A stretch of 31,079 nt of DNA from a virus. The stretch covers positions 1 to 31,079 of the IMG/VR virus record IMGVR_UViG_3300049846_000362. One strand, given 5' to 3'. Positions 1-28,291 of the stretch are shown here, one piece after another. Under the pieces are notes generated by a model, which saw nothing but the letters and a program-made list of their open reading frames with translations, did not search any database and had not been told where the DNA came from. Position numbers and translations under genes: made by a program. Each line of letters begins with the position of its first letter. Positions within the stretch are counted from its first letter, which is position 1.

Positions 1-3000
1 ACGCCAGCCCGACGCAGCTCTTCGTATTCGCCATCGAGCATCGAGCGGATTTTGAGGGCCGCCTGTTGTTCAGTTTCGTTGAGCGCGCGGAACTCATTGC
101 TGCCCGTGCCCATGCGCAGCGCCTTGAGGATGCGCGCGTGCGAGAGCGGCTGCGGACCGGGCTTGATGTTCTCGAACCAGCGGCGGAAGTTGCCGGGGCT
201 GTCCGGCAGCGTGTTGAGGATGTCGCGCAAGGTGAAGACGCGGTCGCCGAGAGCGACGGCGTGGTCGATGTAATGACTCTTGTGCCATGCGGCGATGGAC
301 TTCAGGCCCGCGTTTTCCATGCGCGTCGAGTTGGCCCGCAGCACCGCCGTGAAGAAGTTGCGGAAGCTGTTGTAGGCCTTGCCCGCCTGAATGCGGCGCT
401 GGCGCGCAGCAGCCACAAGGGTCTCGGTGAACTCGGGCGGAGCCTTGGCAGCGTCGAGATGGTTGACGACGTCGGCCATGAGGCGGCCATCGACGACACG
501 GTCTTCCATGACCATGCGGATGACATCGCCGTTCGGAGCCGGGATGTTCTCGACCAGCGAGGCGTAGAGCAGCGGCTCGGTCTCATCGAAGGCGGAGGCC
601 TCGACCGACTTGACCTTGTTGCTTGCTGGCACGCGCTGACCTGAAACAGGGTCGACATGGTCGATCAGCACGAGGCCTTCGTGGAAGACTTGGCCAACGT
701 CCGGCACCGTGTTCGGGAAGGTCGCGACGATGGAGTCGTAGCCGCGCTTGCCAAGGGTGTCGGCGATGATCGAGGTCGCTTGGGTGGGGTGCATCTTGCC
801 GTCGGCACCCTGCACCAGCAGGTTCGCAAGACGACCGTGCAGCTCCATGCCGTTGAGACCCTCGTCAGGGATCGAGGTGATCCAGAGTTGGGCGTCGCGG
901 AAGTTGACCTTTCCGGCTTCTTCGAGATCGGCGATCAGGTCGAGGAGGAAGCTGCTCTCGCGCGTGTAGGTGGCAGTCGGGCGGAAGTCCGCCGGATTGC
1001 TGGCGCGCACAACAAGGCCCATGACTTTCGGCGCATTCGTGAGGCCAAGGCCCTCAAGGTCAGCGAGAAGGAACCGCTCGGCTTCGCGCAGGCTGGCGAT
1101 GTCGCGGTCAAAGTCTTCTGCGGTCTTCTTGGGGGCCGAGCGGACCTCGGCGTCTTGGACAGCCAGCATCGCGCGCTTGCGGGTCATCGTGCCGATGTCA
1201 CGGCGGATGTTTGCGATGAGCGCGATGTTCTCAATGGCCTCGTCGTAGTCGGCGGGATCAAGGCGACCTTCTTCGCGCAGCACCCGCGCGCGGGTCATCA
1301 TGGCGTCGTAGGTCGAGTTGTTGGCGTAGACCTTGTTGGCAACCATCTGGTTGGTGGTGACGTAGACACCGCGACCATAGTCGCCACGGCCCGGCTGCAT
1401 CACAGCATCCGGCGAGGACAGCACGTCGCCGTTCGGGGTGCCATGGTAGTAGACGCGGATGTTGCCATCAGCGTCGATGCCGAGGCCATTGTTGGCGAAC
1501 TCGGTCATGCGGATTTTCCGCTCCATCGACATGGAGCGCATCAGGTCGCCGTAGTAGGCAGCCGCATACTCGGGAGCCACGCCGCCGGTGCGGGGGTCAG
1601 CATCGAGCAGGCGGCGAGCGCCGTCAAAGAGATCGCCGTAGCCGTCGATGCGGCGGAACATCTGCTTGAGCGTCTTGCGACCCAGCAGGCCGTTCACGAG
1701 GTAGGCAACCGCGTCGATCATGCGGTTGGCCAGCATGACCAGCGTGGAGCGCGCGGACAGTTCGCGCATGTCACGACCCTCGCGGATAGCGAAGAGGTCG
1801 CCCTTGGCCACCTTGCCCATCGAGTAGATGGCACCCTGCTCGGCGAACCACTCTTCAGCCAGCTCGTCGATCTTGTTTGGACTGAGGTCATCAACCGTGG
1901 TCGACGGAGCGTAGAGGGCCATGCGCTTCGCGGCAACGCGCTCGCCATTGCGAGCGGCTTCGAGGAACTGTTCGCGGATCAGGGCGAAGTCGTCGTTGTC
2001 GAAGATGCCGGAACGCAGCGCGAGGTGGTGGACCTCGTGCATCACGTCGAACGGATCGGAAACATCCTTGGTCAGACCGATGGCCGTCTTGCGCAGGCTG
2101 GAGCGCAGCGAGGAGAAGCCCTCACCACGGAAGTCAGCGAAGGCGGCGGTCGCACCCGGAGGCAGCGGCTTGTTGGCCAGACGGTAGACGTCGCCGGTCG
2201 TGATAATCGACGTGTTATCGAGGGCGTTGCGGACCGCCTTGCCCTTCAGGTTGAGCGCGCGATAGACCAGCGTGCGCATGGTGTGCTGCACGTCCGGGTC
2301 GCGGTGCGACATGAAGGACTGGATTTCGCGCACGACGGTGGGAGCGCCGGGCACGATGCCGTCGCCGACATTGCCAACCGATTGCGCGTATTCGCGGTTG
2401 ATGGCGTCGTTGAGGTGAGTTGAGAGCGAGGCGCGCAAGACCGGCAGGCCAGCCTTCTTACGGCGGCGGTTCTCGCCACGACGCCAGACCTCATACATGA
2501 TCTGCTGGACGCGCTCGGGGTCGCCATCTTCCAGCGACTTGAGCAGCATGGCGTCAAGGTCACGGCCGGTGCGGATGTCCTCGGGCACCTTCATGGCGGC
2601 GAAGCCCGGATCGGGTTCAGCGCGCATCCGGCGCGTGAGTTCCTGCGCGACAGCCGAACGCTCGTCCCGCTTGCCAGCGTAGAAGCGCTTGATGAGGTCT
2701 TCGTAGGGCAGGTCGGGAAGGGCCTGCGTCTTGGTTGGAGCCGGGCCAGCCTTGGCCTTCGGAGCGTCCTCGCGCTTGGCAGCCGGACTCTGCGTATACT
2801 TTTCGGCTTCGGCGACCGCCTTCTTCTCGGCCTTGGCCACCTTCTCCTTGGCTACGCGAACGCGCTCGGTCGAGCGCGGGGTGTTGCGGAACTGCTTGCC
2901 AGCGCGGTAGGCGTTGGGCAGCTCCTTGCGCGTGAAGGCCATGCTCCGCCCCTCGGCCTTGCTCAGGGCCATGTTGAGGCGGTAGCTGGTGAAGACCACG

Positions 3001-6000
3001 GCGTTGTCGATGGACGTGTCGGTGCCGTCATCGAAGATAGCCTTGATCGCATCGAAGACACGAGTCGGGTCCGTCTTGGCCGGGCCAGCTTCAGGGTCGT
3101 TCTTCGACAGCCAGATCGAGGCGGCATCGAACTCTTCGTCGAGCGCATCGTCGTAGTCGCGGCCATCGACACGCGAAGCCCACGTCGCAAGGAAGTCTTC
3201 GTCCGGCTTGGCTTCGAGTGCGTCGCTGATCTTGTAGGCAGCGTCACGCAGGATTTTGGCGATGTCGCCACGGCCCTCGCCCGCCGGGATGCGGGCGTCG
3301 CCGCGCATCGGCGCGAAGGTGTTGCGGATTGCGGTCAGCTTGAAGAGGAACTCGGCAAGGTCTTGCGCGGTCGCAATGGCCGTCTCGACTTCGTAGTTGC
3401 TGAGTGCGCGGGTCAGGTCGTCGTGCAGCGAATTGACGAGGTTGAGGTGGCCGACGATGTAGCGCGACTGCGCGTTGGAGAACGCGCCGTGCGGCTTGAG
3501 CGCGCCGAAGCGAGCAGCCTCAGCCGGATCAGGAATGATCTTGGCGAAGAGCGGTTCAAGCTCGGGGTCGATAAAGTCCTTGGCCGCAAAGCGGTTAAAG
3601 ATGTCGACCATGTAGGCCCACATCTTCTGCCAGAACGACTTGTCGGCCCAGACGTCCTTGTCGGGACCGCGCATCATCCAAGCCGTGAACTGGTTGGCGA
3701 AGTATTCCTGCGGGGAGAGGGTCGCGTTGGTGACAACCTCGGTCGGAGCCGAGCGGCGGCGCACGCCCTGCGCGTCGAAGACGTCGCCCTCGAAGGCGCT
3801 CTCGCGCACGCCACGCCAGAAGTTGAGGCGGTCTTCCGGGGTCAGGATGTTGATGTAGGCCCAGTGCGCGACCTCGTGGTAGAGCGCCGCCAACTTGGGG
3901 ATGCCGCCCTTATTGGCGTTGAGGACGACGCGGTTGAGGCCCCGCTTGTCCGGGTCCGGCGTCCAGCCACGGTAGAAGTTTTCGCCACGGCTGCCGCCGA
4001 GATCGGGGGCGAACTTCGAGGACAGGCGGTCGAGGAAGGACTTGGCCGCCGCAATCTCCTTGGGGTCGTGACCAGCGAAGATGGCGTCGATGCGCTCGTT
4101 GGCTTCGCGCTTGGCGGCGACGGGCATGTCGATGCCGTTGGGAGCGATGCGTGCCCAGACGCCATAGAGACCTTCGAGGGTCTCGATGGTCGCGTCGATC
4201 TTGGTGGCGCTGCGGGTCCACGGCAGGTTTTCGAGATGCGAGATCATCCCGAAGAACTCGTAGAGACTGAACTCGCTATCGCGTGCGACGCGGAAGCCGG
4301 GGCCGACTTGCTTGGCTTCGCGCATCAACTGCACGGCAGTCTGGACCGAAGCGAACTCGTCGCTCGACAGCTTGGTGAAGTCGACGTTGGTCCGGCGGGC
4401 TTCGTCCAGCGGGATCGGCAGCTTGTCCAGCGGATCGGCGTCGGCAGCAGCAGCGGCAGCGATCTCTTCAGGAGTCGCGGTGCGGAAACCGTCACGCGCC
4501 TTGTCGCTGGCAGAGCGGGTGCCCTCAGGAACCGAGCCAACCTCGAAGCTGTTCGGGTCGCTTTTGCCGTAGAGGGCTTCGATGCCGAGACCGGCTTCGC
4601 GCTGACGCTGGCTCAGAACGCGGACATCGTTCGGGTTCGTCTTGGAGCGGATGGCGGGGACGCGGCCAGCCTCGACTTCAGGGGTGATGGCTTCGGCGCG
4701 AGCGGCTTCAGCCGCGTCGGGCGAGTTGCGTGCCTCGACGCGGTTAGCGCCGCGAACCAGCTCGGCAAACTCATCCGGCGTCAGGTCGCCAGCGAGGAGC
4801 TGGCGGGTCCACTCGGCAACCTTGTCGAGGAGGTCGGTGCCGTCGGTGGCCGGAGTAGCTTCAGGAGTGGGGGCGTCTTCGGTCCGCACGAGGCCACGCT
4901 CGGCCAGCGTGGTGGTCGGGATCGGGCGCTTGGGGCCACGACCGGACGCGGCCAGCGCGTCGGCTTCCGTGGTGTAGTAGCGCTTGGTGTGCGGCGAGTA
5001 GAAGAGGGTAGTGCCGCGCGGCACGTAGCCGGTCTGCTTTTTCGTCTTGCCACGCTTGGTGGTGTAGGTCCGCGACGTGCCGCCGATGACCCCTTCCATC
5101 GGCTCGGTGGCGGTCCAGAGAGCAACGGGCTGTGCCTCGGCCTGAACGAGGACGGGCTTGCCGTCAGCGTCGGTGACGATCTTGCCAGCTTCGTCACGCT
5201 GCGGGACCATGCGCTCCTTGCTGTTGCGCAGGGCCTCAAGCTCGAAGGCTTCGCGGCTGAGTTGGCCGCGCTGGGGGGCGGTGCCATCGGTGATGGTGCG
5301 AGTGGCTTCGCCCGTGACCGGGTCGCGCTCAGTCGCTTGGCCGGAGCGGAGGATTTCCTGCGGGCGACCATTCTCGGCACGGCCAGCAGTAACCGGGCCA
5401 GTGGCGAGGGTGTCGACGGCGCGGCCAGTCTGGGAGGCCTTCGGCTTGACCTTCTCGCCGGGCGTCGCGGTCAGGCGGTTGTTCTTGGCGGTGCGCTCGA
5501 TAGCTTCGGCAGCAGAAGCGTCAGCCCGCGCGGCGGCTGCGGCCGCGTCTGCGGGGGCAGCGCCGCGCGCCAGAGCGCCACGACGGACCAGCGAGCCAAG
5601 CAGACCGGACTCTTGGAGTTGCTCGGCCAGCGACTTGCCGCTGGCCATCTCGTTGTTGACTTCGCCCATGCCGCCCGACTTGCTGTTCTTGGCGGCGCGG
5701 CGCTTGGCCGCACGGTCGGGAGCCTGCGGCTTGGCCTCGGCGGCACGTTGCGCGGTGATGCGCTCGTAGTCCGCACGCGGCACACCAAGGTCGTTGCCGT
5801 AGCGTTCACTGTAGAGCTTGATGATCTCGTCGGCCTTGTCAGGGAACTTGGCGCGAGCCGTCGCCTCGAAGGCGGTGCGGAACTGCTCGACACCACGCAC
5901 CGGCGCAATGAGGTCGTCGATGATGTCAAAGGCTTCGTCAGCGTCTTCGTCGACGTCGAGCAGATTGTCCGGCAGCGTATAGGGCTTGCGCTCGGGGATC

Positions 6001-7361
6001 GGCGCGACCTCAGGAGTGGTGCCGGGCGTCTTGGTGCCGAAGTCGGCGGGCTTGGGCGGACCTTCAGCCGGTTCCGGCAGCTTCGGCTCGGGAGCCGGTT
6101 CGGCGGTGACGCCCTCGGCGACGGCGGCAGGAGGAGCTTCAGCTTCACCGGCGATGCGCTCGGCTTCGGCCTTGACCAGTTTGATCTCGGCGACGTTCGG
6201 GTCGTTGCGAAGACGGCGAGCCAGCGACTCAAGCTCGGCCACGCGGCGCTGGTTTGCGACGCCCTTGGCGCGGGTCTTGGCATCATCCGACTGGAGGAGG
6301 ATGTCGGTGTTCTTCTTAACATTGTCCCGCAAATCATTGATCTGCTGGAGTTCCGCCATGCGCACGACATTGGCCTGCGCTTGCTTGATGACGGCAGGCG
6401 GCGCACCTTCATTGATAAGCTGGTCAAGCTGAGCCTCGGCACGAGCCTTCGCCTCGGCCAGCATGTTGGGGTCGAAGGTGTCAGCTTGCCCACCCGGAAC
6501 CTGTTCAGCCGGAGCGGCACTCGGGTCGGGGATCGAGGTCGCGGGTTCCGGCGTCGGCGTCGGATAGGGCTGGCCGTCGAGGTTGGCGAGCAGCTCTTGG
6601 GCCTGACCGTAGTCGGTCTGGTTGATGACTTGTTCGGGAACGCCCGCTTCGGTGAGTTCGGCGGCGGTGCGGCGCATGCCACGCGACTGGAGGCCAGCGG
6701 TCAGGCCGCCGAGAGCGCCACCGAGGATGCCGCCTGCGGCAGCGCCGCCGACGGCGGAGATCGCGCTGCGACCAAAGTCGTATCCGTCTTGGACGCCGAT
6801 CTCGTTGAAGCGGCTCTGATTGATCGCATCGAGCGCGACTTCGGAGACGGCGTTTTCAGCGGCACCAGCAAGGGCACCAGACTTCGCGCCGCCCTTGATG
6901 ATCGCGCCAACGCCCTCGCCCGCGCGGGCTGCGCGCCATGCGCCGCCAGCACCCTTGGCCACGGAGAAGGCGTTGAGCGGGTCGATCAGGGTCGAGGCAG
7001 CCCAGTCAGTCCAAGCGCCGCCATCGGTGAAGTCGCGGGTCGGGGCGAGTTCGTAGGCGCGCTGAATGCGGCCCATGCGTTCGCGCTGCGCGTCGTCGGT
7101 GAACTTGCCGCGCACCCAGTCGGTGACGCCCGCAATCGAGTTGTTATTGATCCACGTCTGGTGCGTGTAGAAGTCGTCGATCAGCTCGTCTTCGGACCAG
7201 CTATCGGCATTCTCGCCGTCGGCCTGCCGCTTGCGCATCTCGCGATATTCGCGCTGGAAGCGCGGGTCGCGCAGCAGGGTAGTCGGGTCGACGTTGTCGA
7301 GGTAGTCCCCGAGGTCCACCTTGGTGGGATCGCTCAGGGGGCGAGAAGGCGTAAAGGCCAC
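1..7361 (-). CDS. Giant ejected polyvalent protein with two zinc-peptidase motifs and an ADP-ribosyltransferase domain (3' end missing)
   Basis: Open from 7361 to the window edge with no in-frame stop (2453 codons), so the C-terminus is missing. The start is GTG at 7361 with GGAG 7 nt upstream; no in-frame ATG exists between it and the upstream amber stop. Residues 20-130 (DYLDNVDPTTLLRDPRF, LIDDFYTHQTWINNN) resemble the start of podoviral ejection proteins. A Gly/Ala-rich hydrophobic stretch follows (about 135-225), then Pro/Ala-rich linkers to about 700. Zinc motif 1 is HEVAH (1162-1166) with EYFANQF (E1219). Zinc motif 2 is HEVHH (1775-1779) with EEWFAEQ (E1837). An ART-like domain has YYHGTP (H1973), GRGVYVT (Y2000) and HEGLVLID (E2228), ending KVKSVEASAFD. 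It is probably packaged, ejected and active on host proteins; substrates are unknown. Confidence 0.85.
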   Translation of the reverse strand, partial: MAFTPSRPLSDPTKVDLGDYLDNVDPTTLLRDPRFQREYREMRKRQADGENADSWSEDELIDDFYTHQTWINNNSIAGVTDWVRGKFTDDAQRERMGRIQRAYELAPTRDFTDGGAWTDWAASTLIDPLNAFSVAKGAGGAWRAARAGEGVGAIIKGGAKSGALAGAAENAVSEVALDAINQSRFNEIGVQDGYDFGRSAISAVGGAAAGGILGGALGGLTAGLQSRGMRRTAAELTEAGVPEQVINQTDYGQAQELLANLDGQPYPTPTPEPATSIPDPSAAPAEQVPGGQADTFDPNMLAEAKARAEAQLDQLINEGAPPAVIKQAQANVVRMAELQQINDLRDNVKKNTDILLQSDDAKTRAKGVANQRRVAELESLARRLRNDPNVAEIKLVKAEAERIAGEAEAPPAAVAEGVTAEPAPEPKLPEPAEGPPKPADFGTKTPGTTPEVAPIPERKPYTLPDNLLDVDEDADEAFDIIDDLIAPVRGVEQFRTAFEATARAKFPDKADEIIKLYSERYGNDLGVPRADYERITAQRAAEAKPQAPDRAAKRRAAKNSKSGGMGEVNNEMASGKSLAEQLQESGLLGSLVRRGALARGAAPADAAAAAARADASAAEAIERTAKNNRLTATPGEKVKPKASQTGRAVDTLATGPVTAGRAENGRPQEILRSGQATERDPVTGEATRTITDGTAPQRGQLSREAFELEALRNSKERMVPQRDEAGKIVTDADGKPVLVQAEAQPVALWTATEPMEGVIGGTSRTYTTKRGKTKKQTGYVPRGTTLFYSPHTKRYYTTEADALAASGRGPKRPIPTTTLAERGLVRTEDAPTPEATPATDGTDLLDKVAEWTRQLLAGDLTPDEFAELVRGANRVEARNSPDAAEAARAEAITPEVEAGRVPAIRSKTNPNDVRVLSQRQREAGLGIEALYGKSDPNSFEVGSVPEGTRSASDKARDGFRTATPEEIAAAAAADADPLDKLPIPLDEARRTNVDFTKLSSDEFASVQTAVQLMREAKQVGPGFRVARDSEFSLYEFFGMISHLENLPWTRSATKIDATIETLEGLYGVWARIAPNGIDMPVAAKREANERIDAIFAGHDPKEIAAAKSFLDRLSSKFAPDLGGSRGENFYRGWTPDPDKRGLNRVVLNANKGGIPKLAALYHEVAHWAYINILTPEDRLNFWRGVRESAFEGDVFDAQGVRRRSAPTEVVTNATLSPQEYFANQFTAWMMRGPDKDVWADKSFWQKMWAYMVDIFNRFAAKDFIDPELEPLFAKIIPDPAEAARFGALKPHGAFSNAQSRYIVGHLNLVNSLHDDLTRALSNYEVETAIATAQDLAEFLFKLTAIRNTFAPMRGDARIPAGEGRGDIAKILRDAAYKISDALEAKPDEDFLATWASRVDGRDYDDALDEEFDAASIWLSKNDPEAGPAKTDPTRVFDAIKAIFDDGTDTSIDNAVVFTSYRLNMALSKAEGRSMAFTRKELPNAYRAGKQFRNTPRSTERVRVAKEKVAKAEKKAVAEAEKYTQSPAAKREDAPKAKAGPAPTKTQALPDLPYEDLIKRFYAGKRDERSAVAQELTRRMRAEPDPGFAAMKVPEDIRTGRDLDAMLLKSLEDGDPERVQQIMYEVWRRGENRRRKKAGLPVLRASLSTHLNDAINREYAQSVGNVGDGIVPGAPTVVREIQSFMSHRDPDVQHTMRTLVYRALNLKGKAVRNALDNTSIITTGDVYRLANKPLPPGATAAFADFRGEGFSSLRSSLRKTAIGLTKDVSDPFDVMHEVHHLALRSGIFDNDDFALIREQFLEAARNGERVAAKRMALYAPSTTVDDLSPNKIDELAEEWFAEQGAIYSMGKVAKGDLFAIREGRDMRELSARSTLVMLANRMIDAVAYLVNGLLGRKTLKQMFRRIDGYGDLFDGARRLLDADPRTGGVAPEYAAAYYGDLMRSMSMERKIRMTEFANNGLGIDADGNIRVYYHGTPNGDVLSSPDAVMQPGRGDYGRGVYVTTNQMVANKVYANNSTYDAMMTRARVLREEGRLDPADYDEAIENIALIANIRRDIGTMTRKRAMLAVQDAEVRSAPKKTAEDFDRDIASLREAERFLLADLEGLGLTNAPKVMGLVVRASNPADFRPTATYTRESSFLLDLIADLEEAGKVNFRDAQLWITSIPDEGLNGMELHGRLANLLVQGADGKMHPTQATSIIADTLGKRGYDSIVATFPNTVPDVGQVFHEGLVLIDHVDPVSGQRVPASNKVKSVEASAFDETEPLLYASLVENIPAPNGDVIRMVMEDRVVDGRLMADVVNHLDAAKAPPEFTETLVAAARQRRIQAGKAYNSFRNFFTAVLRANSTRMENAGLKSIAAWHKSHYIDHAVALGDRVFTLRDILNTLPDSPGNFRRWFENIKPGPQPLSHARILKALRMGTGSNEFRALNETEQQAALKIRSMLDGEYEELRRAG

Positions 7362-7424: not shown

Positions 7425-8333
7425 CTAGCCGCGCCAGAAATTAGGGTCGTCGAAACTGGAGGTGGTGGGAGCGGTCTTGGCGGAGCCGCTCCAGAAGGAC
7501 GGGTCATCAAGATCAGCGCCTTGATCTCCGCCAGCCAAGACGAAGTGCCAGTGGTCGCCGGTGGCGTGGGCTGAGCGGCCAGCACCAACTTCGTTCTTGG
7601 CCTCGATAATGGTGTAGCCCTGCGCCTCGATCTGGCGGCGGGCCTGCTCGAAGGTCATGCCGGGGATCGGTTTGATGTCGACAGCGCCGTGCGAGCGGGC
7701 GTGCCACGAGTTCGGGTTGGCCTTTGAGAGCGGATGGTTGGGGCCACGATAGCCGCTGGTCACGACTGCGCCGGGCAGGATGTCAGGCAAGACGCGACTT
7801 GCGTTTACACTACCGGAGGGTGATTTGGGGGTGACTCCTTTTGTCCAGAAGTCTGGGCTGTCGAGGAGGTCGACGTCTTGGCTCCGGCCACCAGTGGCAG
7901 CCTTGCCAGTCCAGAAGCCCGGATCATCGAGATCGGCGGTGGTGTTCCCCGCACCACCGCCGCGACGAAGCTGGCCCATGTTCTTGTTGACGTAGTTGCG
8001 CGTCTCTTCAGGGAGCGCGCTGAACCAGTTGTTGCCCTGCTGCTCGATGATGCGGCCGACCTTGCCGGGGCCAAGGTTGTAGGCGGCCCAGCCCTTCTGG
8101 ATGTCGCCGCCGAAGTGGCGGATCATCGCGTCGAGATAGTCGCGACCGACGCGCGCGAGTTCCTCGGGCGAGTTGTCGCGGGCGGGCGTGACGCCGTAGC
8201 CGGGGTCGCGCTCGGTGCCCGGCATCACCTGCATGCGGCCACGCGCACCCTTCGGCGACGTGACCCAAGAGCCGTCGGGATTGAAGTCCCGTCCGCCGCT
8301 CTCGGTCTGCTCGGTGATGCGATAGATGCTCAT
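7425..8333 (-). CDS. Virion peptidoglycan hydrolase: lytic transglycosylase plus M15-type peptidase
   Basis: 302 aa with two catalytic domains. Residues about 1-125 are an SLT lytic transglycosylase: ESGG at 11-14 gives the catalytic Glu (E11), GRMQVMPGT at 32-40, and AYNLGPGKV at 84-92. Residues about 180-268 look like a D,D-peptidase of the M15A type: TSGYRGPNHP, then SWHARSHGAVDI (209-220) and HWHF (261-264), which would supply the zinc ligands. Four short motifs, DDPGFW (136), DSPDFW (158), DDPSFW (276) and DDPNFW (295), lie in the linker and C-terminus. It sits among ejected proteins, so it probably opens the cell wall during DNA entry by cutting glycan and peptide, rather than being the lysis endolysin. 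The start is ATG at 8333, and the stop is an amber codon. Confidence 0.85.
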   Translation of the reverse strand: MSIYRITEQTESGGRDFNPDGSWVTSPKGARGRMQVMPGTERDPGYGVTPARDNSPEELARVGRDYLDAMIRHFGGDIQKGWAAYNLGPGKVGRIIEQQGNNWFSALPEETRNYVNKNMGQLRRGGGAGNTTADLDDPGFWTGKAATGGRSQDVDLLDSPDFWTKGVTPKSPSGSVNASRVLPDILPGAVVTSGYRGPNHPLSKANPNSWHARSHGAVDIKPIPGMTFEQARRQIEAQGYTIIEAKNEVGAGRSAHATGDHWHFVLAGGDQGADLDDPSFWSGSAKTAPTTSSFDDPNFWRG

Positions 8334-14599: not shown

Positions 14600-15055
14600 T
14601 CAGATGACCTTCTTCAAGATTGGGCCACGGTAGGCGTAGCCAAGACGCTCATAGACGGAGGCCGTCAGGTCGTTGTCGATGTTGGCAGCGACTCCGATCA
14701 CGACTTCCAAGGCTCCAACCTCCTTGGCCCACCGCTCGAACGCCTTGATGAGCGCAGCGCAGGTGAACCCACCACGAAACTCCGGCGCGACATACATGGC
14801 CATCTCGTGAGCGACGCGGGCGGTCGAGAAGTAGAACCGATGCGCGACGCCAAACTTGAAGCCCTTGAGGACGCCGTCCTCGTTTTGAGCCATCAGGACA
14901 ACGCCGTCGTCCGGGTTGTTGATGCAGCCAAGGAGGGTCTGCATCAGCACGTCTTCGTCAAACGGAATGTGGGTGAAAGCGGACTCGGCGTGCATCCGCT
15001 CGGCCAGCTCCCTCACGGCCCATGCGTCCGCGAAGTTGGTGGCTCGGCGGATCAC
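14600..15055 (-). CDS. GNAT-family N-acetyltransferase
   Basis: 151 aa, near normal GNAT length. The family moves an acetyl group from acetyl-CoA to an amine. The acetyl-CoA-binding region is seen at about residues 85-110, with MAMYVAPEFRGGFTCAALIK carrying an R-G-G in place of the usual R-G-x-G loop. VYERLGYAYRG near the C-terminus matches the family's 'Y.k.GF' segment. The start is GTG at 15055, overlapping the fibre stop (GTGA); no good ribosome site is seen, so coupling is likely. The substrate is unknown. Similar genes often lie beside internal virion protein genes in podoviruses, so a virion protein could be the target. Confidence 0.85.
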   Translation of the reverse strand: MIRRATNFADAWAVRELAERMHAESAFTHIPFDEDVLMQTLLGCINNPDDGVVLMAQNEDGVLKGFKFGVAHRFYFSTARVAHEMAMYVAPEFRGGFTCAALIKAFERWAKEVGALEVVIGVAANIDNDLTASVYERLGYAYRGPILKKVI

Positions 15056-18967: not shown

Positions 18968-20167
18968 TTAGGCGATCTTCTGCCAGCCCTTGATGTAGGT
19001 GTGGACCTTGCCCTGAGTCAGTTCGAGGCCGCACTCCGTCTGGTAGGCGTGCTTGATGACGTCTTCGCCGGGGTTCTGGATGTTCTCCAGAAGTTTGGTG
19101 TCCCGGTTCTCCATGTAGCGATACTTGAGATACGGGAAGTCGATGATGACCATCGCACGATCCATCGCGGTGATCTGACGGAACTGCGGGTGCAGGTGGA
19201 TCATCAGGTCGCCAGCGAAGGTCTTGTAGTTGGTCAGGTTGACGCCGTAAGCGCCCTCGACGGTTTCAGGAGTCCAGCGCGACTTGGCGATGCGCTGGAG
19301 GTTGGCCGCGACCGTGGCACCGCAGAAGGCAATCTTCTGCGACGAGCCGTAGGCGAACACGTTGCTGATGAGGAACGCGTCGAACTCGGCTTCCGTCATG
19401 ATGTTGGCAGCGGCGGTCTGGGTGCCGCTGGAAACGTCGATGACGTTGGTCAGCTCGTTGATGAGACCGCCCGTGGTGCGGAGCGGCTGCGCGGTCGAAC
19501 CGTTGGTTTCCGACTTCTTGCCGAAGAACATGGCACGCTCGATGTCCTGCATGTGCAGCTTGAGCGCCTTGGTCATGGCTTCTTCCAGCTTGTTGCCGGT
19601 GCGCAGATAGGTCTCGTTCTGGGTGCCAGTCACCGTGAACGTGGTCTTGAAAATCTGCGTGTAGTTGCTGGCAACTTCCGAGTCGAAGGTGACAGCAGTC
19701 GGCACGTTCGAGCCTTCAGTCGCGGCAAAGCCGATGATGTAGAGTTCGTCGGCGTCGGCGATGGCCACACCGTTGGCCTGACCCACGGCGCGGGTGACGG
19801 CGAGGGTGGTGGCGGTGGTGTCGGCGGTCACGCGGAACACTTCGCCGGTGCGCAGGTTGGCGACGAGCGCGCCAGCCACGGCATAGACGTTCATGTTCGA
19901 GGCAGTCAGGGTGATGTTGGCGGCGGTGCCCGAGGCCGGGGTGCCAGCAACAGCGCCCGAGACAATCAGCTTCCGGTCGGGAAGTTCGTCGCGGAAGTTC
20001 TTGTATTCGGGGTCGTCGGTCGACTCGCTCGACGTCATGGCGAGCAGCGCGTTCAGCGGCGCGTTGCCGTTCGGTTCGAGCAGGGTGAAGAGTTCGCGGT
20101 AGTTCTTGGGACGGAAGTCGGTCCCGAACTGGCCGGTGCCACGAAGGCCTTGGACTGCGATAGACAT
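18968..20167 (-). CDS. Major capsid protein, SU10-like (HK97 fold)
   Basis: 399 aa. It follows the scaffold gene and has the features I associate with SU10-type (DUF5309) capsid proteins. The N-terminal arm is short, with a 'LLEPNGNAPLNALLA' segment. A Thr/Ala-rich insertion at about residues 72-140 looks like an extra beta domain. KLEEAMTKALKLHMQDIERAM forms the spine helix. Then come GSSQKIAFCGATVAANL and a C-terminal DFPYLKYRYMENRDTKLLENI stretch (positions about 340-360). GGAG precedes the ATG at 20167. It is the main head-shell protein. Upstream and downstream hairpins bracket the gene, suggesting separate control of its mRNA. Confidence 0.88.
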   Translation of the reverse strand: MSIAVQGLRGTGQFGTDFRPKNYRELFTLLEPNGNAPLNALLAMTSSESTDDPEYKNFRDELPDRKLIVSGAVAGTPASGTAANITLTASNMNVYAVAGALVANLRTGEVFRVTADTTATTLAVTRAVGQANGVAIADADELYIIGFAATEGSNVPTAVTFDSEVASNYTQIFKTTFTVTGTQNETYLRTGNKLEEAMTKALKLHMQDIERAMFFGKKSETNGSTAQPLRTTGGLINELTNVIDVSSGTQTAAANIMTEAEFDAFLISNVFAYGSSQKIAFCGATVAANLQRIAKSRWTPETVEGAYGVNLTNYKTFAGDLMIHLHPQFRQITAMDRAMVIIDFPYLKYRYMENRDTKLLENIQNPGEDVIKHAYQTECGLELTQGKVHTYIKGWQKIA

Positions 20168-20379
20168 GGGTATTCTCCAAGCGTGGGCGCACTTATGGCG
20201 CTGCGAAAACTGAGGGTTTTGGCTCGCATCGCAGGGGAATGCTCATCCCTGCATCGACACTTGAAGGGACTTTCGTAGCGGCTTTCGCGGCCCGACGTCG
20301 TCTTCCAAGACGGACGTATAAATGAAGACGGGAGGGGTGATCGTCCCCTCCCGCTAATTTTTTTGAGTGGTTTTTGATC
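20168..20379 (-). other. 212-bp intergenic region between scaffold and capsid genes
   Basis: This is the largest gap between genes in the operon. On the minus strand it holds an A-rich run after the scaffold stop, a 9-bp stem hairpin (20329-20353), the sequence TTCATTTATACG just after it, a possible 6-bp stem GCAGGG/CCCTGC near 20231-20252, and a GGAG ribosome site before the capsid ATG. TATACG could be a -10 element, but no good -35 is seen. It probably sets capsid expression apart from its neighbours. Confidence 0.5.
20329..20353 (-). terminator. Terminator-like hairpin between scaffold and capsid genes
   Basis: Perfect 9-bp stem: CGGGAGGGG at 20329-20337 with CCCCTCCCG at 20345-20353, and a 7-nt loop. 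On the minus strand it is followed by TCTTCATTT. On the plus strand it is followed by CTAATTTTTTT, a better T-tract, so it could stop antisense transcription too. A partial terminator or an mRNA-stabilising hairpin are both possible. Confidence 0.6.
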
Positions 20380-21417
20380 CTAGCCGAGACGCTTCTGCAC
20401 GACGGAGCTGGCGAACTTGTCGAACATCGGGTTGCCCGTGCCTTCGCCCGGAGCTTCGCCCGACGGCGCAGCCGGAGTGGAGGCGAGGCTGCCGCCCGTC
20501 CAAGCCTGACGGCGCTGGTTGATGGCAGCAAGACGCTCGAACTCGGGCGAGTTCATGTTGTTCTTGAAGTCCTTCATGACCGTGATCGTGAGATTGGGGT
20601 CGACGAAGTCTTCGAGGGTGTAGCCGCGCTCGGCAGCGAACATCATGAAGTTCTCGGCTTCGGAGTCGGGCAGGCCAAGCTGCTGCTGGGCACGGTCGAC
20701 GTTGTTGGCGATGTTGCGCTGGATGGAGGCGATCTGAGTTTGGCGCGCGTCCTGCTGACCAGCGCGGGCGGCGTCCGCGACGCCCGCGCCCGTCGCGAGG
20801 ACTTGGGCGAGCATCTGCTGCATCTGCTGGAGCTGCTGCGCGACGGACTGGTTGCCCTGCATCATCTCGCGGTAGCCCGGCGGCAGAGTGGCGGCGTTCT
20901 CCTGCTCCCACTTCGAGAACGGGTCGACGTCGGCGTCCTGCGTCTGGTTGGCGCGGCCAGCGTCGGCGTTAGGATCACCCATCGTCGGGTTCTTCTGGCC
21001 AGCCTTCATGGCGTTCATCATGAAGGCTGCGACGTGTTCCGGCTTAGCGTCCGGGTTGTTCTGGAGCATGGCCTCAACGATGTCCAAGACGGGCTTCATT
21101 TGGGCATGCTTGTAGTTGAGGCTGGAGTAGCGCTCGCTCATCCCCTTGATCTGCTCGGGGGTCATCTTGCGCTTCTTGCCGTCGCCCATGTCCACTTCGT
21201 AGATGATGGGGTCAGCCGCCATCTTGCCGGACTCGTCGGCGGGAGCCGCGCTGGCCATGGCCTTGTCGGTCGAGGTGTCCTTTTCGGGAACCTGCGGCTG
21301 AACGGCGGGGGCTGCGGGAGCAGCCGGGGCAGCCGGAGCGGCAGCGGCGGCGGCAGGATCAACACCCATCTGCTTGGAAGCGATGGCGTCAATCATTTGG
21401 GCGGGGTCGATAGGCAT
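20380..21417 (-). CDS. Capsid scaffolding-like protein
   Basis: 345 aa, directly upstream of the major capsid gene. Scaffolds guide prohead assembly and are lost before packaging. It has an Ala/Pro-rich linker at about residues 20-45 and a small domain around 70-95 (IIYEVDMGDGKKRKMTPEQI). Long charged or Q-rich helices follow (QQLQQMQQMLAQVLA; NIANNVDRAQQQLG), and the C-terminal tail is Gly/Pro-rich ending FASSVVQKRLG. This composition and the position before the capsid gene support scaffold; no enzyme motif is present. AAGGAG stands 8 nt before the ATG at 21417, one of the strongest ribosome sites here, as expected for a highly made protein. Confidence 0.75.
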   Translation of the reverse strand: MPIDPAQMIDAIASKQMGVDPAAAAAAPAAPAAPAAPAVQPQVPEKDTSTDKAMASAAPADESGKMAADPIIYEVDMGDGKKRKMTPEQIKGMSERYSSLNYKHAQMKPVLDIVEAMLQNNPDAKPEHVAAFMMNAMKAGQKNPTMGDPNADAGRANQTQDADVDPFSKWEQENAATLPPGYREMMQGNQSVAQQLQQMQQMLAQVLATGAGVADAARAGQQDARQTQIASIQRNIANNVDRAQQQLGLPDSEAENFMMFAAERGYTLEDFVDPNLTITVMKDFKNNMNSPEFERLAAINQRRQAWTGGSLASTPAAPSGEAPGEGTGNPMFDKFASSVVQKRLG

Positions 21418-21710
21418 TATTCAGTCTCCTTGTTCCCGGCCGTGGCGGGGAGTGTTGCTTCTTCAATTGCAATGCTGCCCTCAAGACGCTGGATCAGCGC
21501 ATCGGGCAGGTTGAGAAGTTGGTTGGCGGCCCAGATTGCGCCGCGCCGAAAGTTGATTTCATCGAGGGACATGTTGGCCGAATTGGCGATGGCCAGTGCG
21601 GCTTGGAGGATTTCCGTGTGCATCGTTTCGGAGAGGATTGCCCACCCACGCGAGGCAAACAGTTTCTTGAGTTCGCGTTGGTTGGCTTTGAGTTGGGTGA
21701 GGCTGGTCAT
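21417..21710 (-). CDS. Hypothetical helical protein before the scaffold (97 aa)
   Basis: 97 aa, begins MTSLTQLKANQRELKKLFAS. The ATG at 21710 comes 5 nt after the previous stop with no good ribosome site, so coupling is likely; the upstream extension to 21818 only mirrors the neighbour. It is mainly helical, with the conserved-looking stretch MSLDEINFRRGAIWAANQLL, and no membrane segment. Its TAA overlaps the scaffold ATG (TAATG). The family is not recognised; from its position it may be a head-assembly or regulatory protein. Confidence 0.75.
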   Translation of the reverse strand: MTSLTQLKANQRELKKLFASRGWAILSETMHTEILQAALAIANSANMSLDEINFRRGAIWAANQLLNLPDALIQRLEGSIAIEEATLPATAGNKETE

Positions 21711-21715
21711 GAGGT

Positions 21716-21952
21716 TTACTGGGGCGTCGAGAAAAAGGCGGTGAGGCTGGCGGAGAACTTGCCGATGATCGCGCCGATGGCGCTGAATGCACCGCCCACC
21801 AAGAGCAGGGTCCGCCACCCGCCGCGTGCTTCACTCAACGTCTTTTGGACGTCGGCGAGGCCCGTCTTGAGTTCGGTCATGGTCGTGGTGAGCATCTTCA
21901 CCTCTTGTTCCAGTTGACCAATGGTGCGGTAGAGATCGGCGTCGGTGGGCAT
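21716..21952 (-). CDS. Coiled-coil plus membrane-anchor protein, holin-like (78 aa)
   Basis: 78 aa, begins MPTDADLYRTIGQLEQEV. Residues about 8-42 form a coiled coil (QLEQEVKMLTTTMTELKTGL). Residues about 47-66 are a single membrane segment (TLLLVGGAFSAIGAIIG) and the tail is short. This layout resembles XhlA-type or class III holin-like proteins. I chose the ATG at 21952 because AGGA lies 5-6 nt upstream; a GTG at 21982 in the same frame would add 10 residues but has no good ribosome site. It follows the two-helix membrane protein after a 63-nt gap. The inferred role is lysis or membrane permeabilisation. Confidence 0.7.
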   Translation of the reverse strand: MPTDADLYRTIGQLEQEVKMLTTTMTELKTGLADVQKTLSEARGGWRTLLLVGGAFSAIGAIIGKFSASLTAFFSTPQ

Positions 21953-22015
21953 GGCGTCCTGCGGTGGCTTGCGTCTTGTCACTGGGTAGCGTCTCGCTAG
22001 TTCGACTGTCGTCCG

Positions 22016-22303
22016 TCAGAGACCCAAAAAGGCGATGGCAACGAGAGCGATCAGGACGGGCGGAACCACGTCCATGAGGGAGGGGAGGTTCCACACGCGT
22101 TTGTCGAAGCAGCCCCACCACGGCATGTTTGCGCGGCGGCCCAGACCGAAGGTTTCGATCCAGCGATATTCGGCTTGGGCAAGTTCGCGGCCAATGAAGT
22201 AGTAGGCCATGAGCAGGGCAAGGATGGCAGAGCCGTCGATCACGTAGCCAAGGGCGAGGGCGATCAGGGTGACGACGGAGTGGGTAAGGTCGGCGAGCTT
22301 CAT
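22016..22303 (-). CDS. Small membrane protein, two transmembrane segments (95 aa)
   Basis: 95 aa. Hydrophobic segments lie at about residues 9-37 and 77-94, separated by a polar, aromatic loop with GRELAQAEYRWIE and PWWGCFDKRVW. I recall similar small membrane proteins with a 'GRE-AQAEYRWIE' motif in other lytic phages, without a firm function. Two membrane segments and small size fit a holin, but the conserved aromatic loop is atypical. A clear ribosome site (AGGAG, 5-6 nt spacing) precedes the ATG at 22303. It lies 8 nt after the previous gene and next to a second membrane protein, which supports a lysis cassette; this is inference. Confidence 0.75.
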   Translation of the reverse strand: MKLADLTHSVVTLIALALGYVIDGSAILALLMAYYFIGRELAQAEYRWIETFGLGRRANMPWWGCFDKRVWNLPSLMDVVPPVLIALVAIAFLGL

Positions 22304-22311
22304 GGTGGCTC

Positions 22312-22713
22312 CTATGTGGCGTCGGCGGTGAGTTCGATGGTGGCGGAGTCAATGGCGGTCGAGCCGCCGAAGGGGCGGATTTCGATGGTGAAGGTGCAGG
22401 TGCGGTATGTTCCGGCGGTGGCCGTGAGGGACCATTGGCGCAGCGCATTAAGTCGGAGCCACGAGCCGAAGGTGCCGGACGGGGTCGTGCCCGAAATCAT
22501 CGTGGCACGGACCTCGTAGTTGGAAGTGGAGATGGAGGGCAGGACGACGTCTTCGAGGAAGAAGCCGGTGCCGTCGTAGGCCGCGCCGGTCGTGCGGATT
22601 TCGTAGGTGGTGGTCGTGGGCGTGAGGCCGCCAGACGCGGTGTAGAGCGACTGGTTGGTCAGCGAGATGCGGTCGCTGGATGTGCCGAGCAGGACTGCGA
22701 GGACGCCAGTCAT
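22312..22713 (-). CDS. Beta-rich hypothetical protein after the fibre (133 aa)
   Basis: 133 aa, begins MTGVLAVLLGTSSDRISLTN. The ATG at 22713 shares one base with the fibre stop (TAATG), so translation is probably coupled to the fibre; the longer frame to 22935 mirrors fibre coding sequence. It is rich in Thr and Ser with alternating hydrophobic residues (YEIRTTG, YEVRATMIS, CTFTIEIRPFGG), which suggests a beta-sandwich. There is no strong signal or membrane segment, though the start (GVLAVLLG) is mildly hydrophobic. Its place would suit a fibre partner, cap or chaperone, but I recognise no family. Confidence 0.75.
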   Translation of the reverse strand: MTGVLAVLLGTSSDRISLTNQSLYTASGGLTPTTTTYEIRTTGAAYDGTGFFLEDVVLPSISTSNYEVRATMISGTTPSGTFGSWLRLNALRQWSLTATAGTYRTCTFTIEIRPFGGSTAIDSATIELTADAT

Positions 22714-25700
22714 TAGCTGAGACCCGAGCCGGAGATGAACCAGCGCGTCGCCGTGATCTTGACGGCGGTCGCGATGCCGTTGGGAGCCAGCGTGCGCGAG
22801 CCGGTCGTGCCGAAAGGCGACCAGATAAGGGTGTCGGAGTTGATGGCGATGGTCATGTTGCCCGAGCCATCGTTGACGAAGGTCAGGGTCGCACCGATGG
22901 GGTAGGCGACCGAGGCGTTGGCCGCGATGGTCCACGTGGCTGCACCGCCCGAGTTGTAGAGGTGCTTGCCCATGTCGGCCAAGATGGTGGTGTAGGTGCC
23001 GGACTGCGGGTTCTGCGGGACGCCCTTGTAGCCGACGGCGGCGGCGCGGGCGGGCGAGGTGACGTCGCCGTTGGTGTCGAGGACGAGCTTGTTGGTGGAA
23101 CCGCCAGCGTCTTGGAAGGCAAGGTTGGTGCCGCGCAGGTAGAGGGTGTTGGTGTCGGACGCGAGGTTGCCGTGGTTCGACGAGCCAAGGAAGAGGGTGC
23201 CGACGATTTCGACATTGCCGTTGACGTCGAGGGTCGAAGACGGCGACGTGCCGATACCAAGGTTGCCCGCAGCGTCGAGGCGCATGCGCTCGGCGTTGTT
23301 GGTCTGGAAGATCAGCGGCGTCGCAGCGATGTTGTTGAGGTAGGTCTGACCGCCGTTGACTTGGATGCGGAAGGTCTCGACGCCGTTGGCGCTGAACGAG
23401 CCAATGGAGCCGGACGTGCCGTTGATGGTCAGGCCGCCCCAGCCAGCGTTGTTGACCGGGTTGGTGCTGCCGATCCCGAGGTTGCCGTTGCCGTCGATGC
23501 GGGCACGCTCGACGTCCTGCGTCTTGAAGATCAGCGGGGCGTTGCCGATCTGCGAGATTTCGAGGTTGCCGGTGCCGGTGTTGTAGATTTGGAAGTGGCC
23601 GTTGACGCCCGCGTTGCGCAGGATGCGCGCCTCGAAGTCGGTCGCGTTGGTCGCGTGGAGGTCGATGTAGGTCGCGCCGCTGCCGGTGCGCAGGCCGCCG
23701 AGTTCGAGGGCCACGTCGCCGGTCGAGACGCCGTAGCCGCTAGTGATGGAGCCGGAGGCTTGGAGCTGAGAGGCGAAACGGAACGTGCCGTCCGAGAAGA
23801 GGGTGGCTCGCTCGACGCCGGAGGAGACGAAGGCCATGGACTGCGAAGGGGCATCCATGTTGATGCGCAGGTTGGCGTTCGCACCATAGCTGACGTAGGG
23901 CGTCGCGCCAGCGCTGAAGCTCAAGATGGGCGTGCCAGCGGCGTTATAGGTGACGAAGTTGTCGTCGGACTGGTGCGTGAAGGTGGTCGTGCCGGTGCCA
24001 GCGAAGTTGCGGAACTGGAGGTTCTGGTTGTTGGCGATGCGGACGTTGCCGCCAGCCACGTCGAGGCGCGCGCCGGGCGAGGTGGTGCCAATGCCGACGT
24101 TGCCACTGGAGAGGCGCATGACCTCGCCGTTGTTCGAGTAGAACTCAAGCTGGCCATCAGCGCTGCTGAACATGCCGCTGTCGGTGTCGCCGGGGCTGCC
24201 GAAGGCGTAGCCGTTGTTGTTGACGCCGTTTGCACCGGGCGTGCCGCCGCGCGCGCGGATGCCGCCGTTGACTTCGAGCGAGGAGCCGGGGTTGGTCGTG
24301 CCGATACCGACGAGACCGGACGCGGTGACGCGCATCCGCTCGCCGGTGCCGTTGCGGGCAAGGGCGAAGGCTGTGTCGAAGTAGATGGTGTTGAGGGTCG
24401 CCTTGTTCAGCAAGACGTCGTTGTCAAACTGAGCAATGCCGAACGCGCGCATGGTGCCGCCGACATCGAGACGGAAGGCGGGGGAGGCAGTGCCGATGCC
24501 GACTTCGCCGGTCGGGGTGATGCGCACGCGCTCGGCGTTGCCAGCGAGGAAGGCCAGCGCGCGGGCTTGGCCGGTGCCGCCGTTGGTGTTGCCGATGTTG
24601 GTGACTTGAGTGGCGGTGTCGACACGGATTTCAAAGCGGTCGTAGTTCGCGCCGAAGACGGAGGTGCCGTTTTTGGGGGCGAAGAGCGCGAAGCCATTGG
24701 TGGCGTCGGTGCGGATGATGGCGCTGCCGCCGACGTCGAGGTTGGACTCGGGGGTCGTGGTGCCGATGCCGACGTTGCCGTTGGCCTGAATGCGCATCCG
24801 CTCGGTGATCGGGAAGCCGGTCGCGAAGGCCAGCGCGCCAGCGCTGATGTCGTCGGTGGCAGTGATGGTCGCGAGGTTGGATGCGCCGGAGGTGGCGAAG
24901 CGCAGGCGCATCGAGTTGGTCGAGCCGAGCTGGGCGGTGCGGTCGACCGAGTTGGTGTTGCCAATGGTGAGGTCAGTGGTCGGCGTGGTGCCGAGGCCAA
25001 GCTGGCCCGAGCCGTTGATGAAGACGTTGTTGTTTCCGACGGTCTCGCTGATCTGGAGCAGGCCAGCGGTGGTGACGGACATCGTCCAATCGCGGGTCGT
25101 GGTGTCGGTCGCGTCTTCGAGGCGGAGGCCACCCTTGAGGTGGAAGCGGCTCTGCGGGTTGGTGGTGTTGAGGCCAAAGTTGCCCGAGGCGTCGAAGCGG
25201 CCCCACTCGGTCGTGCCGTTGGAGTGGGTGAAGCGCAGGCCAGCGGTGTTGTTGGCGACGGAGCGGAGTTGGGCACCAGCGGTGCCCTGCCGGATCACGA
25301 CGGTCGCGTCGCCGGAGGTGGCGAAGACGTCGATGCTGGGGAGGGTGGCCGCGCCGGAGAGATTGAGGGTCGTGCCAGAGAGGCCGCCAGTCAGTGTGCC
25401 GCCAGCCAGCGGGAGGTAGTTGGCGAGGCTGCTGGAGAGGCTGGTTGGCGAGACCGGCGTGTAGCCCAAGACGCCGGTGATGTCGCCGGAGATGAGGGTG
25501 ACGGTGCCGGTGCGGCCATTGAACGAGGTGACGCCCGTGGCAGCGAGGTTGACCAGCGGATTGAACTTGGTGCCGTCGGGGATCGCGCCGGTCGAGGTGT
25601 GCGGCGTGTTACAGATGTAGACCGTGTCGTTGTAGAGGACGAGGTCAAGGCGCAGGTAGGCGGTCGAGGCGGCGTGCGTGCCGCGCTGCCGGAAGAAGGA

Positions 25701-25964
25701 CGAGTTGGCGACGCTGACCCAGCCAGCGTTCGGGTCGATGTAGTCGCCCGTGCGCTGTTCGAGGACGAAGGTGGTGGGGTTGATGCGCAGCGACCAAAGG
25801 TCGGAACGGAGCGCACCCGTGTCGGCACGCCACAGATCATCCAAGATGTCGGCGAGCGTGCGGCTGCCCTTCTCGGCCGCTTCGAGATAGGCGTCGAGAA
25901 CGTGTTCGCCGGTGGCGGCGGACTGAAAGCGGAGCTGATCGCCAGAGGGACGGGTGGTGGTCAT
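22713..25964 (-). CDS. Tail fibre protein with GIGTxxP repeats
   Basis: 1083 aa; the likely host-receptor-binding fibre. Residues about 20-85 form an N-terminal module that is paralogous to the start of the second fibre-like protein at 15052-16629, so they probably dock to the same kind of site on the tail. Residues 144-170 carry GVTSFNGRTGTVTL followed by GDITGVLGYTP, a classic phage-fibre linker. Residues about 261-917 hold eight copies of a GNxGIGTxxPxxxLDVxG motif separated by variable beta-rich segments. The C-terminus (about 985-1083: VGYKGVPQNPQSGTYTTIL, then SDTLIWSPFGTTGSRTLA and a WFISG end) resembles a common fibre-tip domain. No peptidase S74 auto-chaperone is evident. It starts 3 nt after the previous stop. 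Confidence 0.9.
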   Translation of the reverse strand: MTTTRPSGDQLRFQSAATGEHVLDAYLEAAEKGSRTLADILDDLWRADTGALRSDLWSLRINPTTFVLEQRTGDYIDPNAGWVSVANSSFFRQRGTHAASTAYLRLDLVLYNDTVYICNTPHTSTGAIPDGTKFNPLVNLAATGVTSFNGRTGTVTLISGDITGVLGYTPVSPTSLSSSLANYLPLAGGTLTGGLSGTTLNLSGAATLPSIDVFATSGDATVVIRQGTAGAQLRSVANNTAGLRFTHSNGTTEWGRFDASGNFGLNTTNPQSRFHLKGGLRLEDATDTTTRDWTMSVTTAGLLQISETVGNNNVFINGSGQLGLGTTPTTDLTIGNTNSVDRTAQLGSTNSMRLRFATSGASNLATITATDDISAGALAFATGFPITERMRIQANGNVGIGTTTPESNLDVGGSAIIRTDATNGFALFAPKNGTSVFGANYDRFEIRVDTATQVTNIGNTNGGTGQARALAFLAGNAERVRITPTGEVGIGTASPAFRLDVGGTMRAFGIAQFDNDVLLNKATLNTIYFDTAFALARNGTGERMRVTASGLVGIGTTNPGSSLEVNGGIRARGGTPGANGVNNNGYAFGSPGDTDSGMFSSADGQLEFYSNNGEVMRLSSGNVGIGTTSPGARLDVAGGNVRIANNQNLQFRNFAGTGTTTFTHQSDDNFVTYNAAGTPILSFSAGATPYVSYGANANLRINMDAPSQSMAFVSSGVERATLFSDGTFRFASQLQASGSITSGYGVSTGDVALELGGLRTGSGATYIDLHATNATDFEARILRNAGVNGHFQIYNTGTGNLEISQIGNAPLIFKTQDVERARIDGNGNLGIGSTNPVNNAGWGGLTINGTSGSIGSFSANGVETFRIQVNGGQTYLNNIAATPLIFQTNNAERMRLDAAGNLGIGTSPSSTLDVNGNVEIVGTLFLGSSNHGNLASDTNTLYLRGTNLAFQDAGGSTNKLVLDTNGDVTSPARAAAVGYKGVPQNPQSGTYTTILADMGKHLYNSGGAATWTIAANASVAYPIGATLTFVNDGSGNMTIAINSDTLIWSPFGTTGSRTLAPNGIATAVKITATRWFISGSGLS
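23214..25184 (-). repeat. Eight GIGTxxP/LDVxG repeats in the fibre shaft
   Basis: Copies include GNFGLNTTNP, GQLGLGTTPT, GNVGIGTTTP (followed by LDVGG), GEVGIGTASP, GLVGIGTTNP, GNVGIGTTSP, GNLGIGSTNP and GNLGIGTSPS (followed by LDVNG). The spacing varies, so they are diverged shaft repeats rather than recent tandem copies. The underlying DNA repeats could recombine and vary fibre length. Confidence 0.85.
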
Positions 25965-25967
25965 GGC

Positions 25968-26336
25968 CTACTCGTTGTTCAGGTGCCGCGCGAGCGCGGC
26001 GCGAGTGATGGACGCGCGGTCCAACTGTTCGAGTTGACGTTGCTTGACCTTGAGTTCGTCGATCTCTGCGCGGAGATCAGTGAGGGTGTCGGAGTAGAGT
26101 GCGCATTGAGCCACCATCAGCGCCTTCATCTCGTCGATGGCGGGCTTGATGATGAGCGAAGCCTCTTTGATGGCCTCTTCGACCGCCTTGGCTTGGCTGA
26201 CGAGGTCGGGGGCCACGTAATACTGAGGGGCGCTGGGCGGCGGCGCAGAGTTCTGCGCGTTAACGAAGGCGGCCAGCGTCTTGCGGACGTCTTCCAGTTG
26301 GGTCTGGAGGCGGTCGAGGCGGGTTTCTTCAGTCAT
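25968..26336 (-). CDS. Coiled-coil hypothetical protein (122 aa)
   Basis: 122 aa, begins MTEETRLDRLQTQLEDVRK. The ATG at 26336 overlaps the portal TGA as ATGA and has AGGT about 9 nt upstream; the longer frame reaching back to 26606 only mirrors portal coding sequence. Residues 4-27 and about 45-110 are strongly helical and charged with heptad-like spacing, split by a Pro-rich linker (SAPPPSAPQYY). There is no signal peptide or membrane segment. The family is not recognised. Sitting between portal and fibre it may be a small virion or assembly protein, but nothing proves this. Confidence 0.75.
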   Translation of the reverse strand: MTEETRLDRLQTQLEDVRKTLAAFVNAQNSAPPPSAPQYYVAPDLVSQAKAVEEAIKEASLIIKPAIDEMKALMVAQCALYSDTLTDLRAEIDELKVKQRQLEQLDRASITRAALARHLNNE

Positions 26337-28255: not shown

Positions 28256-28291
28256 GCGGCGACATTGTCGTGGAGATTGGAGGCTGTCGTC

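What the first reader, a model, noticed from the sequence alone, without database searches (positions are those of the whole stretch)
1848..3878. Two HExxH zinc-peptidase modules in one polypeptide with matching third-ligand motifs
HEVAH at residues 1162-1166 is followed 53 residues later by E1219 in EYFANQF. HEVHH at 1775-1779 is followed 58 residues later by E1837 in EEWFAEQ. Both pairs share HEV-x-H and E-[YW]-F-A-x-Q, which suggests an internal duplication of a gluzincin-like domain or two related domains. They could process the virion polyprotein itself or cut host targets after entry.
Basis: partly seen in the sequence, partly recalled or inferred. Interest (0 to 1): 0.7.

Follow-up and report, generated by a model that had tools for sequence, protein, structure and literature searches.

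The report
Phage ejection protein with protease motifs
A giant protein of a marine bacterial virus, probably injected into the host with the viral DNA, carries two zinc-protease motifs; the first lies in a recognisable protease fold, the second in a helical domain with no solved relative, and every relative examined keeps at least one of the two.

Summary
One 2453-residue minus-strand ORF (3-7361, cut by the contig end) carries HEVAH 1162-1166/E1219 and HEVHH 1775-1779/E1837, far above chance. It belongs to a family of about 3200-4000-residue proteins in CRP-810-type marine podoviruses with an SU10-like capsid and portal. The family very probably consists of internal/ejection proteins of the "polyvalent" kind, with a weak ART-PolyVal match after the second site.

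Site 1 lies in a domain predicted to have the M34 zincin fold (lethal factor/PPEP type; VIA Z up to 6.7). Site 2 lies in a confidently predicted all-helical domain without a zincin beta-sheet and without a PDB match; its only structural relatives are viral proteins named "large polyvalent protein". The two regions resemble each other only around the two catalytic helices, and the signal falls to 30% once four motif residues are masked, so duplication is unproven.

Among 81 non-redundant relatives, 44 keep both motifs, 27 only the first, 10 only the second, none neither. Most likely it is a virion-packaged protease module acting on the polypeptide itself or on host proteins. Multi-MPTase polyvalent proteins are known, so this is a new variant.

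The parts
3..7361 (-). giant ORF, 2453 residues, truncated at the contig end; relatives are about 3200-4000 residues
   Evidence: L002 3197 aa, 53% identity
6690..6764 (-). Gly/Ala-rich hydrophobic segment, residues 200-224, candidate membrane or channel segment
   Evidence: the matching N-terminal piece of CRP-810 is annotated internal virion protein D
3372..4259 (-). domain 1 (residues 1035-1330), M34-like zincin fold by prediction
3864..3878 (-). HEVAH (1162-1166) in a predicted helix
3705..3707 (-). E1219, candidate third zinc ligand of domain 1
1557..2609 (-). domain 2 (residues 1585-1935), all-helical by prediction, with HExxH and Glu in two separate helices
2025..2039 (-). HEVHH (1775-1779) in a predicted helix
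1851..1853 (-). E1837, candidate third ligand of domain 2
1092..1475 (-). ART-PolyVal-like region (residues 1963-2090), below the curated cut-off
7425..8333 (-). neighbouring gene with SLT transglycosylase domain, similar to virion endolysin proteins

Best explanation
This is the giant internal (ejection) protein of a CRP-810-type marine podovirus. It combines an N-terminal hydrophobic module, an M34-like zincin metallopeptidase (domain 1), an all-helical domain that carries a second HExxH...E site (domain 2), an ART-like domain and a long C-terminal region. Inferred mechanism: the chain is packaged in the head and leaves it with the DNA through an SU10-like tail. At least one of the two HExxH sites then acts as a zinc peptidase, either trimming the giant chain at its Pro/Ala-rich linkers so that its modules separate, or cutting host proteins early in infection. 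Domain 2 is a conserved helical module in its own right, whose metal site is optional. Shown here: conservation of the motifs, helix context, the domain-1 fold by prediction, loss patterns and gene context. Inferred: metal binding, catalysis, packaging and substrates.
For: Motifs conserved over about 28% identity. Domain 1 model (pLDDT 79): the VIA rows with Z 4.8-6.7 are M34 proteases or related lethal-factor-like toxin domains. The candidate ligand Glu follows HExxH across the family. 81 non-redundant proteins: 44 both, 27 first only, 10 second only, 0 neither; in the scan that used non-catalytic domain-2 patterns, 46/9/11/0. Tree: first site changed state once, second about four times. Context: SLT gene next door, SU10 capsid and portal, terminase. 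CRP-810 annotates the N-terminal piece as internal virion protein D (PMC11288001). SU10 ejects five proteins including a transglycosylase (PMC9509320). L095 and L164 encode the HExxH modules on a separate gene from the N- or C-terminal module.
Against: No peptidase activity, zinc binding or virion proteome has been measured. Foldseek E-values are weak (best 0.025) and VIA Z stays under 8, so the M34 match is a fold-level inference. Domain 2 shows no zincin fold. In domain 2, invariant residues outside the metal site (domain positions E73, H102, R112, R117) are kept even where HExxH is gone, so that domain probably has another, non-peptidase role. The 'never neither' pattern rests on about five events; 3.3 double losses would be expected if rows were independent, so it is suggestive only. 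N4 vRNAP, a comparable giant ejected protein with an HExxH domain, is packaged uncleaved (PMC5512222).
Confidence: 0.6

Rival explanations
1. Both regions are copies of one zincin domain made by an internal duplication; copy 2 has since lost its beta-sheet.
For: Profile-profile comparison of the two families: 93.7-95% probability, in register over the HExxH and Glu helices. With the four motif residues masked it stays in register at E 5.6e-4, against 0.2-0.6 for shuffled profiles.
Against: Masked probability falls to 30% and vanishes with wider masking. Direct BLASTP of the window's two regions finds nothing (best E 1.2). Domain 2 is predicted all-helical.
Confidence: 0.35
2. The HExxH domains act on host proteins after entry, as effectors, rather than on the phage's own chain.
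For: An ART-like domain lies in the same chain. Iyer et al. 2017 (PMC5512222) list this as one option for such domains. Loss of either site in different lineages fits target-driven turnover.
Against: No target is known. It cannot be separated from self-processing by sequence.
Confidence: 0.4
3. The second HExxH...E is not a peptidase site but a structural or other metal site in a helical domain.
For: All-helical model without an edge strand to bind substrate. HExxH absent in 27 of 81 proteins while the conserved Arg, His and Asn residues of the domain mostly persist. The N4 vRNAP paper notes that HExxH also occurs in non-protease enzymes (PMC12633501).
Against: E1837 is 62/62 conserved with HExxH. 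Where the first site is lost (10 proteins) the second is always intact.
Confidence: 0.35
4. Chance motifs in a long protein.
For: HExxH is short and the protein long.
Against: Expected count 0.018; conserved across the family.
Confidence: 0.01

Closest known systems
Polyvalent proteins with zincin-like MPTase domains (Iyer et al. 2017, PMC5512222), including the phage N4 vRNAP C-terminal region and P1 DdrB
   Same: Giant multidomain phage protein; HExxH domain(s) plus ART-PolyVal-like domain; Iyer reports 1-5 MPTases per chain, often interspersed; lethal-factor-like fold reported for N4; structural relatives of domain 2 in BFVD are named large polyvalent protein
   Different: No curated Pfam MPTase or ART model passes its cut-off; no RNA polymerase or ArdC found; the second HExxH lies in an all-helical domain; either site can be lost
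M34 peptidases (anthrax lethal factor catalytic domain, PPEP-1/Zmp1, PPEP-2, PPEP-3)
   Same: Predicted fold of domain 1 (VIA Z 4.7-6.7, 133-151 residues aligned, low sequence identity); HExxH helix followed by a Glu helix
   Different: No sequence-level match; the position 7 residues before the Glu, where M34 enzymes have a catalytic Tyr (own knowledge), is mostly Asn here (62 of 73)
CRP-810 internal virion proteins gp36/gp35/gp34 (PMC11288001)
   Same: Direct homologue, 28% identity, both HExxH sites present
   Different: Annotated as three ORFs, two of them hypothetical; no protease mentioned in the sections of the paper read here
SU10 (Kuravirus) ejection proteins gp20-24 (PMC9509320)
   Same: SU10-type capsid and portal in the same genome; transglycosylase next to the giant gene
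   Different: No SU10 record was among the sequence matches of the giant protein

Membership tests
Zincin (gluzincin) metallopeptidase, domain 1 | HExxH in a helix with a downstream Glu in a second helix | tested here: met
   Glu conserved 73/73 with HExxH
Zincin (gluzincin) metallopeptidase, domain 1 | beta-sheet plus helices core with structural match to a known zincin | tested here: met
   VIA Z 6.7, rmsd 3.5-3.6, 136-140 residues to lethal factor catalytic domain; PPEP Z 4.7-5.9. Only two strands in the model and Foldseek alone is weak, best E 0.025
Zincin (gluzincin) metallopeptidase, domain 2 | HExxH helix and Glu helix | tested here: met
Zincin (gluzincin) metallopeptidase, domain 2 | zincin beta-sheet | tested here: not met
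   no strand of 3 or more residues in the model; pLDDT about 90-97 around the catalytic helices
Zincin (gluzincin) metallopeptidase, domain 2 | structural match to a known zincin | tested here: inconclusive
   no PDB match of note, best Z 4.0 over 42 residues
Zinc peptidase, either domain | zinc binding and proteolysis | not testable with these tools
   needs biochemistry
Polyvalent protein (Iyer 2017) | several unrelated effector domains in one phage polypeptide near virion genes | tested here: met
   zincin-like and ART-like domains beside capsid, portal and SLT genes
Polyvalent protein (Iyer 2017) | curated ART-PolyVal or MPTase-PolyVal model above cut-off | tested here: not met
   ART-PolyVal 22.1 bits against cut-off 31.2; no MPTase-PolyVal hit
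Ejection / internal virion protein | present in the virion and lost on genome release | not testable with these tools
   inferred from gene context and the CRP-810 annotation

The most novel reading that the evidence does not exclude
Domain 2 is a previously undescribed all-alpha metallopeptidase scaffold. It forms with the M34-like domain 1 a redundant pair inside one ejected protein, of which each phage lineage keeps at least one working site.
Probability: 0.2. Interest if true: 0.65.

Novelty: new variant of a known kind. Interest (0 to 1): 0.45.

Why it matters
Giant ejected proteins with HExxH domains occur in N4-like and P1-like phages, but what the peptidases do is unknown. A large natural family in which either site is lost, yet never seen to lose both, gives a natural experiment and a cultured phage (CRP-810) on which self-processing against host targeting can be tested. 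Domain 2 may add a helical scaffold to the known HExxH proteins.

Tried and rejected
Sequence profiles of domains 1, 2 and the ART region against PDB gave nothing useful. Pfam, PHROGs and NCBIfam found no peptidase family above cut-off for the giant protein; only three members touch Peptidase_M91, best E 0.001. Domain 2 against PDB by Foldseek and VIA: no fold found, the low rows look like generic helical bundles. Reading the ORF splits in CRP-810 and L026 as natural gene fission was not accepted: they shift frame by one at overlapping open frames, which could be sequencing or assembly indels; only L095 and L164 are clear separate genes. Chance was rejected.

Full report
Observation. The window is a whole virus record of 31079 bases. 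Its minus strand carries an ORF from 7361 down to the contig end, 2453 residues, cut off at the 3' side. Two HExxH in one shuffle of this protein occurred once in 5000.

Family. A search of viral contigs with the whole protein gave 34 loci. The nearest, L002, is 53% identical and encodes 3197 residues; the others are near 28% and, where complete, mostly 3100-4000 residues. The only clear cultured relative is Roseobacter phage CRP-810. A paper defines CRP-810-type phages as a new family and, in the sections read, names only an 'internal virion protein D' in this region (PMC11288001). Neighbouring genes here are an SLT transglycosylase, an SU10-type major capsid protein, an SU10-type portal and a terminase. 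In SU10 five proteins, one a transglycosylase, are ejected from the head (PMC9509320). The giant protein is therefore very probably an ejection protein, but this is inferred.

Motif conservation. Domain-1 and domain-2 profiles drew in more loci. In domain 1 the motif is HExxH followed by E-[FYL]-F-A-x-Q; in domain 2 HE[IV]xH followed by E-W-F-[AVS]-[ED]. Among 81 non-redundant proteins with both domains readable, 44 keep both motifs, 27 only the first, 10 only the second, and none has lost both (three proteins truncated before site 1 were left out). The scan that used domain-2 patterns away from the catalytic residues gave 46, 9, 11 and 0 loci, so the absence of double losses is not made by the search patterns alone. 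A tree without the catalytic columns needs one change at site 1 and four at site 2. With so few events, and 3.3 double losses expected if rows were independent, the pattern is suggestive and not proof of redundancy.

Third ligand. In domain 1 the Glu is present in 73 of 73 rows with HExxH and in none of the 10 that lost it (K, R or Q instead). In domain 2 it is present in 62 of 62 with HExxH and in 12 of 22 without. This supports E1219 as part of the same site; for E1837 support is weaker, because half of the HExxH-less rows keep it. Rows are related, so counts are not independent events; the domain-1 losses are a single clade.

Structure. Domain 1 (pLDDT 79, pTM 0.73) places HEVAH in helix 122-137 and the Glu in helix 183-197, with two strands before them. 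The best VIA rows are M34 enzymes or related lethal-factor-like toxin domains, Z 4.8-6.7; Foldseek alone is weak, best E 0.025. Domain 2 (pLDDT 83, pTM 0.78) places HEVHH in helix 186-198 and the Glu in helix 244-263, but the model has no strand and no PDB match. Its only strong structural relatives are uncultured phage proteins named 'large polyvalent protein associated domain-containing' (E 3.8e-12 and 1.3e-5).

Are the two domains duplicates? The two profiles align at 93.7% probability over 81 columns that cover the two catalytic helices. With the four motif residues masked the alignment stays in register but drops to 30% (E 5.6e-4), and wider masking removes it; reversed and shuffled controls gave 0.1-0.3%. 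Common origin of the catalytic core is possible but not shown; the rest of the two domains differs.

Domain 2 beyond the motif. Residues such as E73, H102, R112, R117 and R173 of the domain are kept even in proteins without its HExxH. The domain therefore probably has a role that does not need the metal site.

Other parts. A weak ART-PolyVal match lies at 1963-2090; 16 of 23 relatives match the same model, best E 1e-6, the window itself below the curated cut-off. Two relatives (L095, L164) encode the HExxH-containing part on a gene of its own, apart from the N-terminal or the C-terminal module, so these modules can be made as separate chains.

Comparison with the known. Iyer et al. (PMC5512222) describe zincin MPTases as the commonest domain of polyvalent proteins, one to five per chain, and already propose self-processing or host cleavage. 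N4 vRNAP has an HExxH domain followed by a large helical region of unknown fold (PMC12633501). The present protein works like these by architecture. It fails the curated Pfam cut-offs, so family membership at that level is not claimed.

Verdict. The motifs are real and conserved. Domain 1 is very likely an M34-like zincin. Domain 2 is a helical HExxH domain of uncertain function.

Noticed in passing
L036 (CRP-810) 19926-29581; L026 from 9905 on: The giant protein is split into three overlapping ORFs shifted by one frame, near window residues 354 and 2320 (L036) or 480 and 1620 (L026). Could be real fission, frameshifting or sequence indels.
   Followed up: partly
L095 2663-5820; L164 6612-6900: Clear gene fission: an N-terminal module (L095) or C-terminal module (L164) is encoded separately, with other sequence between the genes.
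   Followed up: partly
window residue N1212 (nt 3726-3728): Seven residues before E1219, where M34 enzymes are known to have a catalytic Tyr, the family mostly has Asn (62 of 73 rows with HExxH).
   Followed up: no
L133, L134, L142, L145, L149, L152, L153: A clade whose domain-1 site reads FH[AS]xxQ with Lys or Gln in place of the ligand Glu: a likely pseudoenzyme with the first His retained.
   Followed up: partly
L071 residue 2312; L112 residue 1497: Extra HExxH motifs outside the two aligned domains.
   Followed up: no
window 14600-15055: GNAT acetyltransferase gene inside the structural module; also reported in several CRP-810-type subgroups (PMC11288001).
   Followed up: no
window 22713-25964: 1083-residue tail-fibre-like protein with repeated GIGT-type segments and a weak CBM_5_12 match at 98-127.
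   Followed up: no
L193 and L195: Relatives in a Poseidonocella genome (the paper reports a CRP-810-type prophage in that genus) and in a Phycisphaerae MAG contig, which may be contamination or a wider host range.
   Followed up: no
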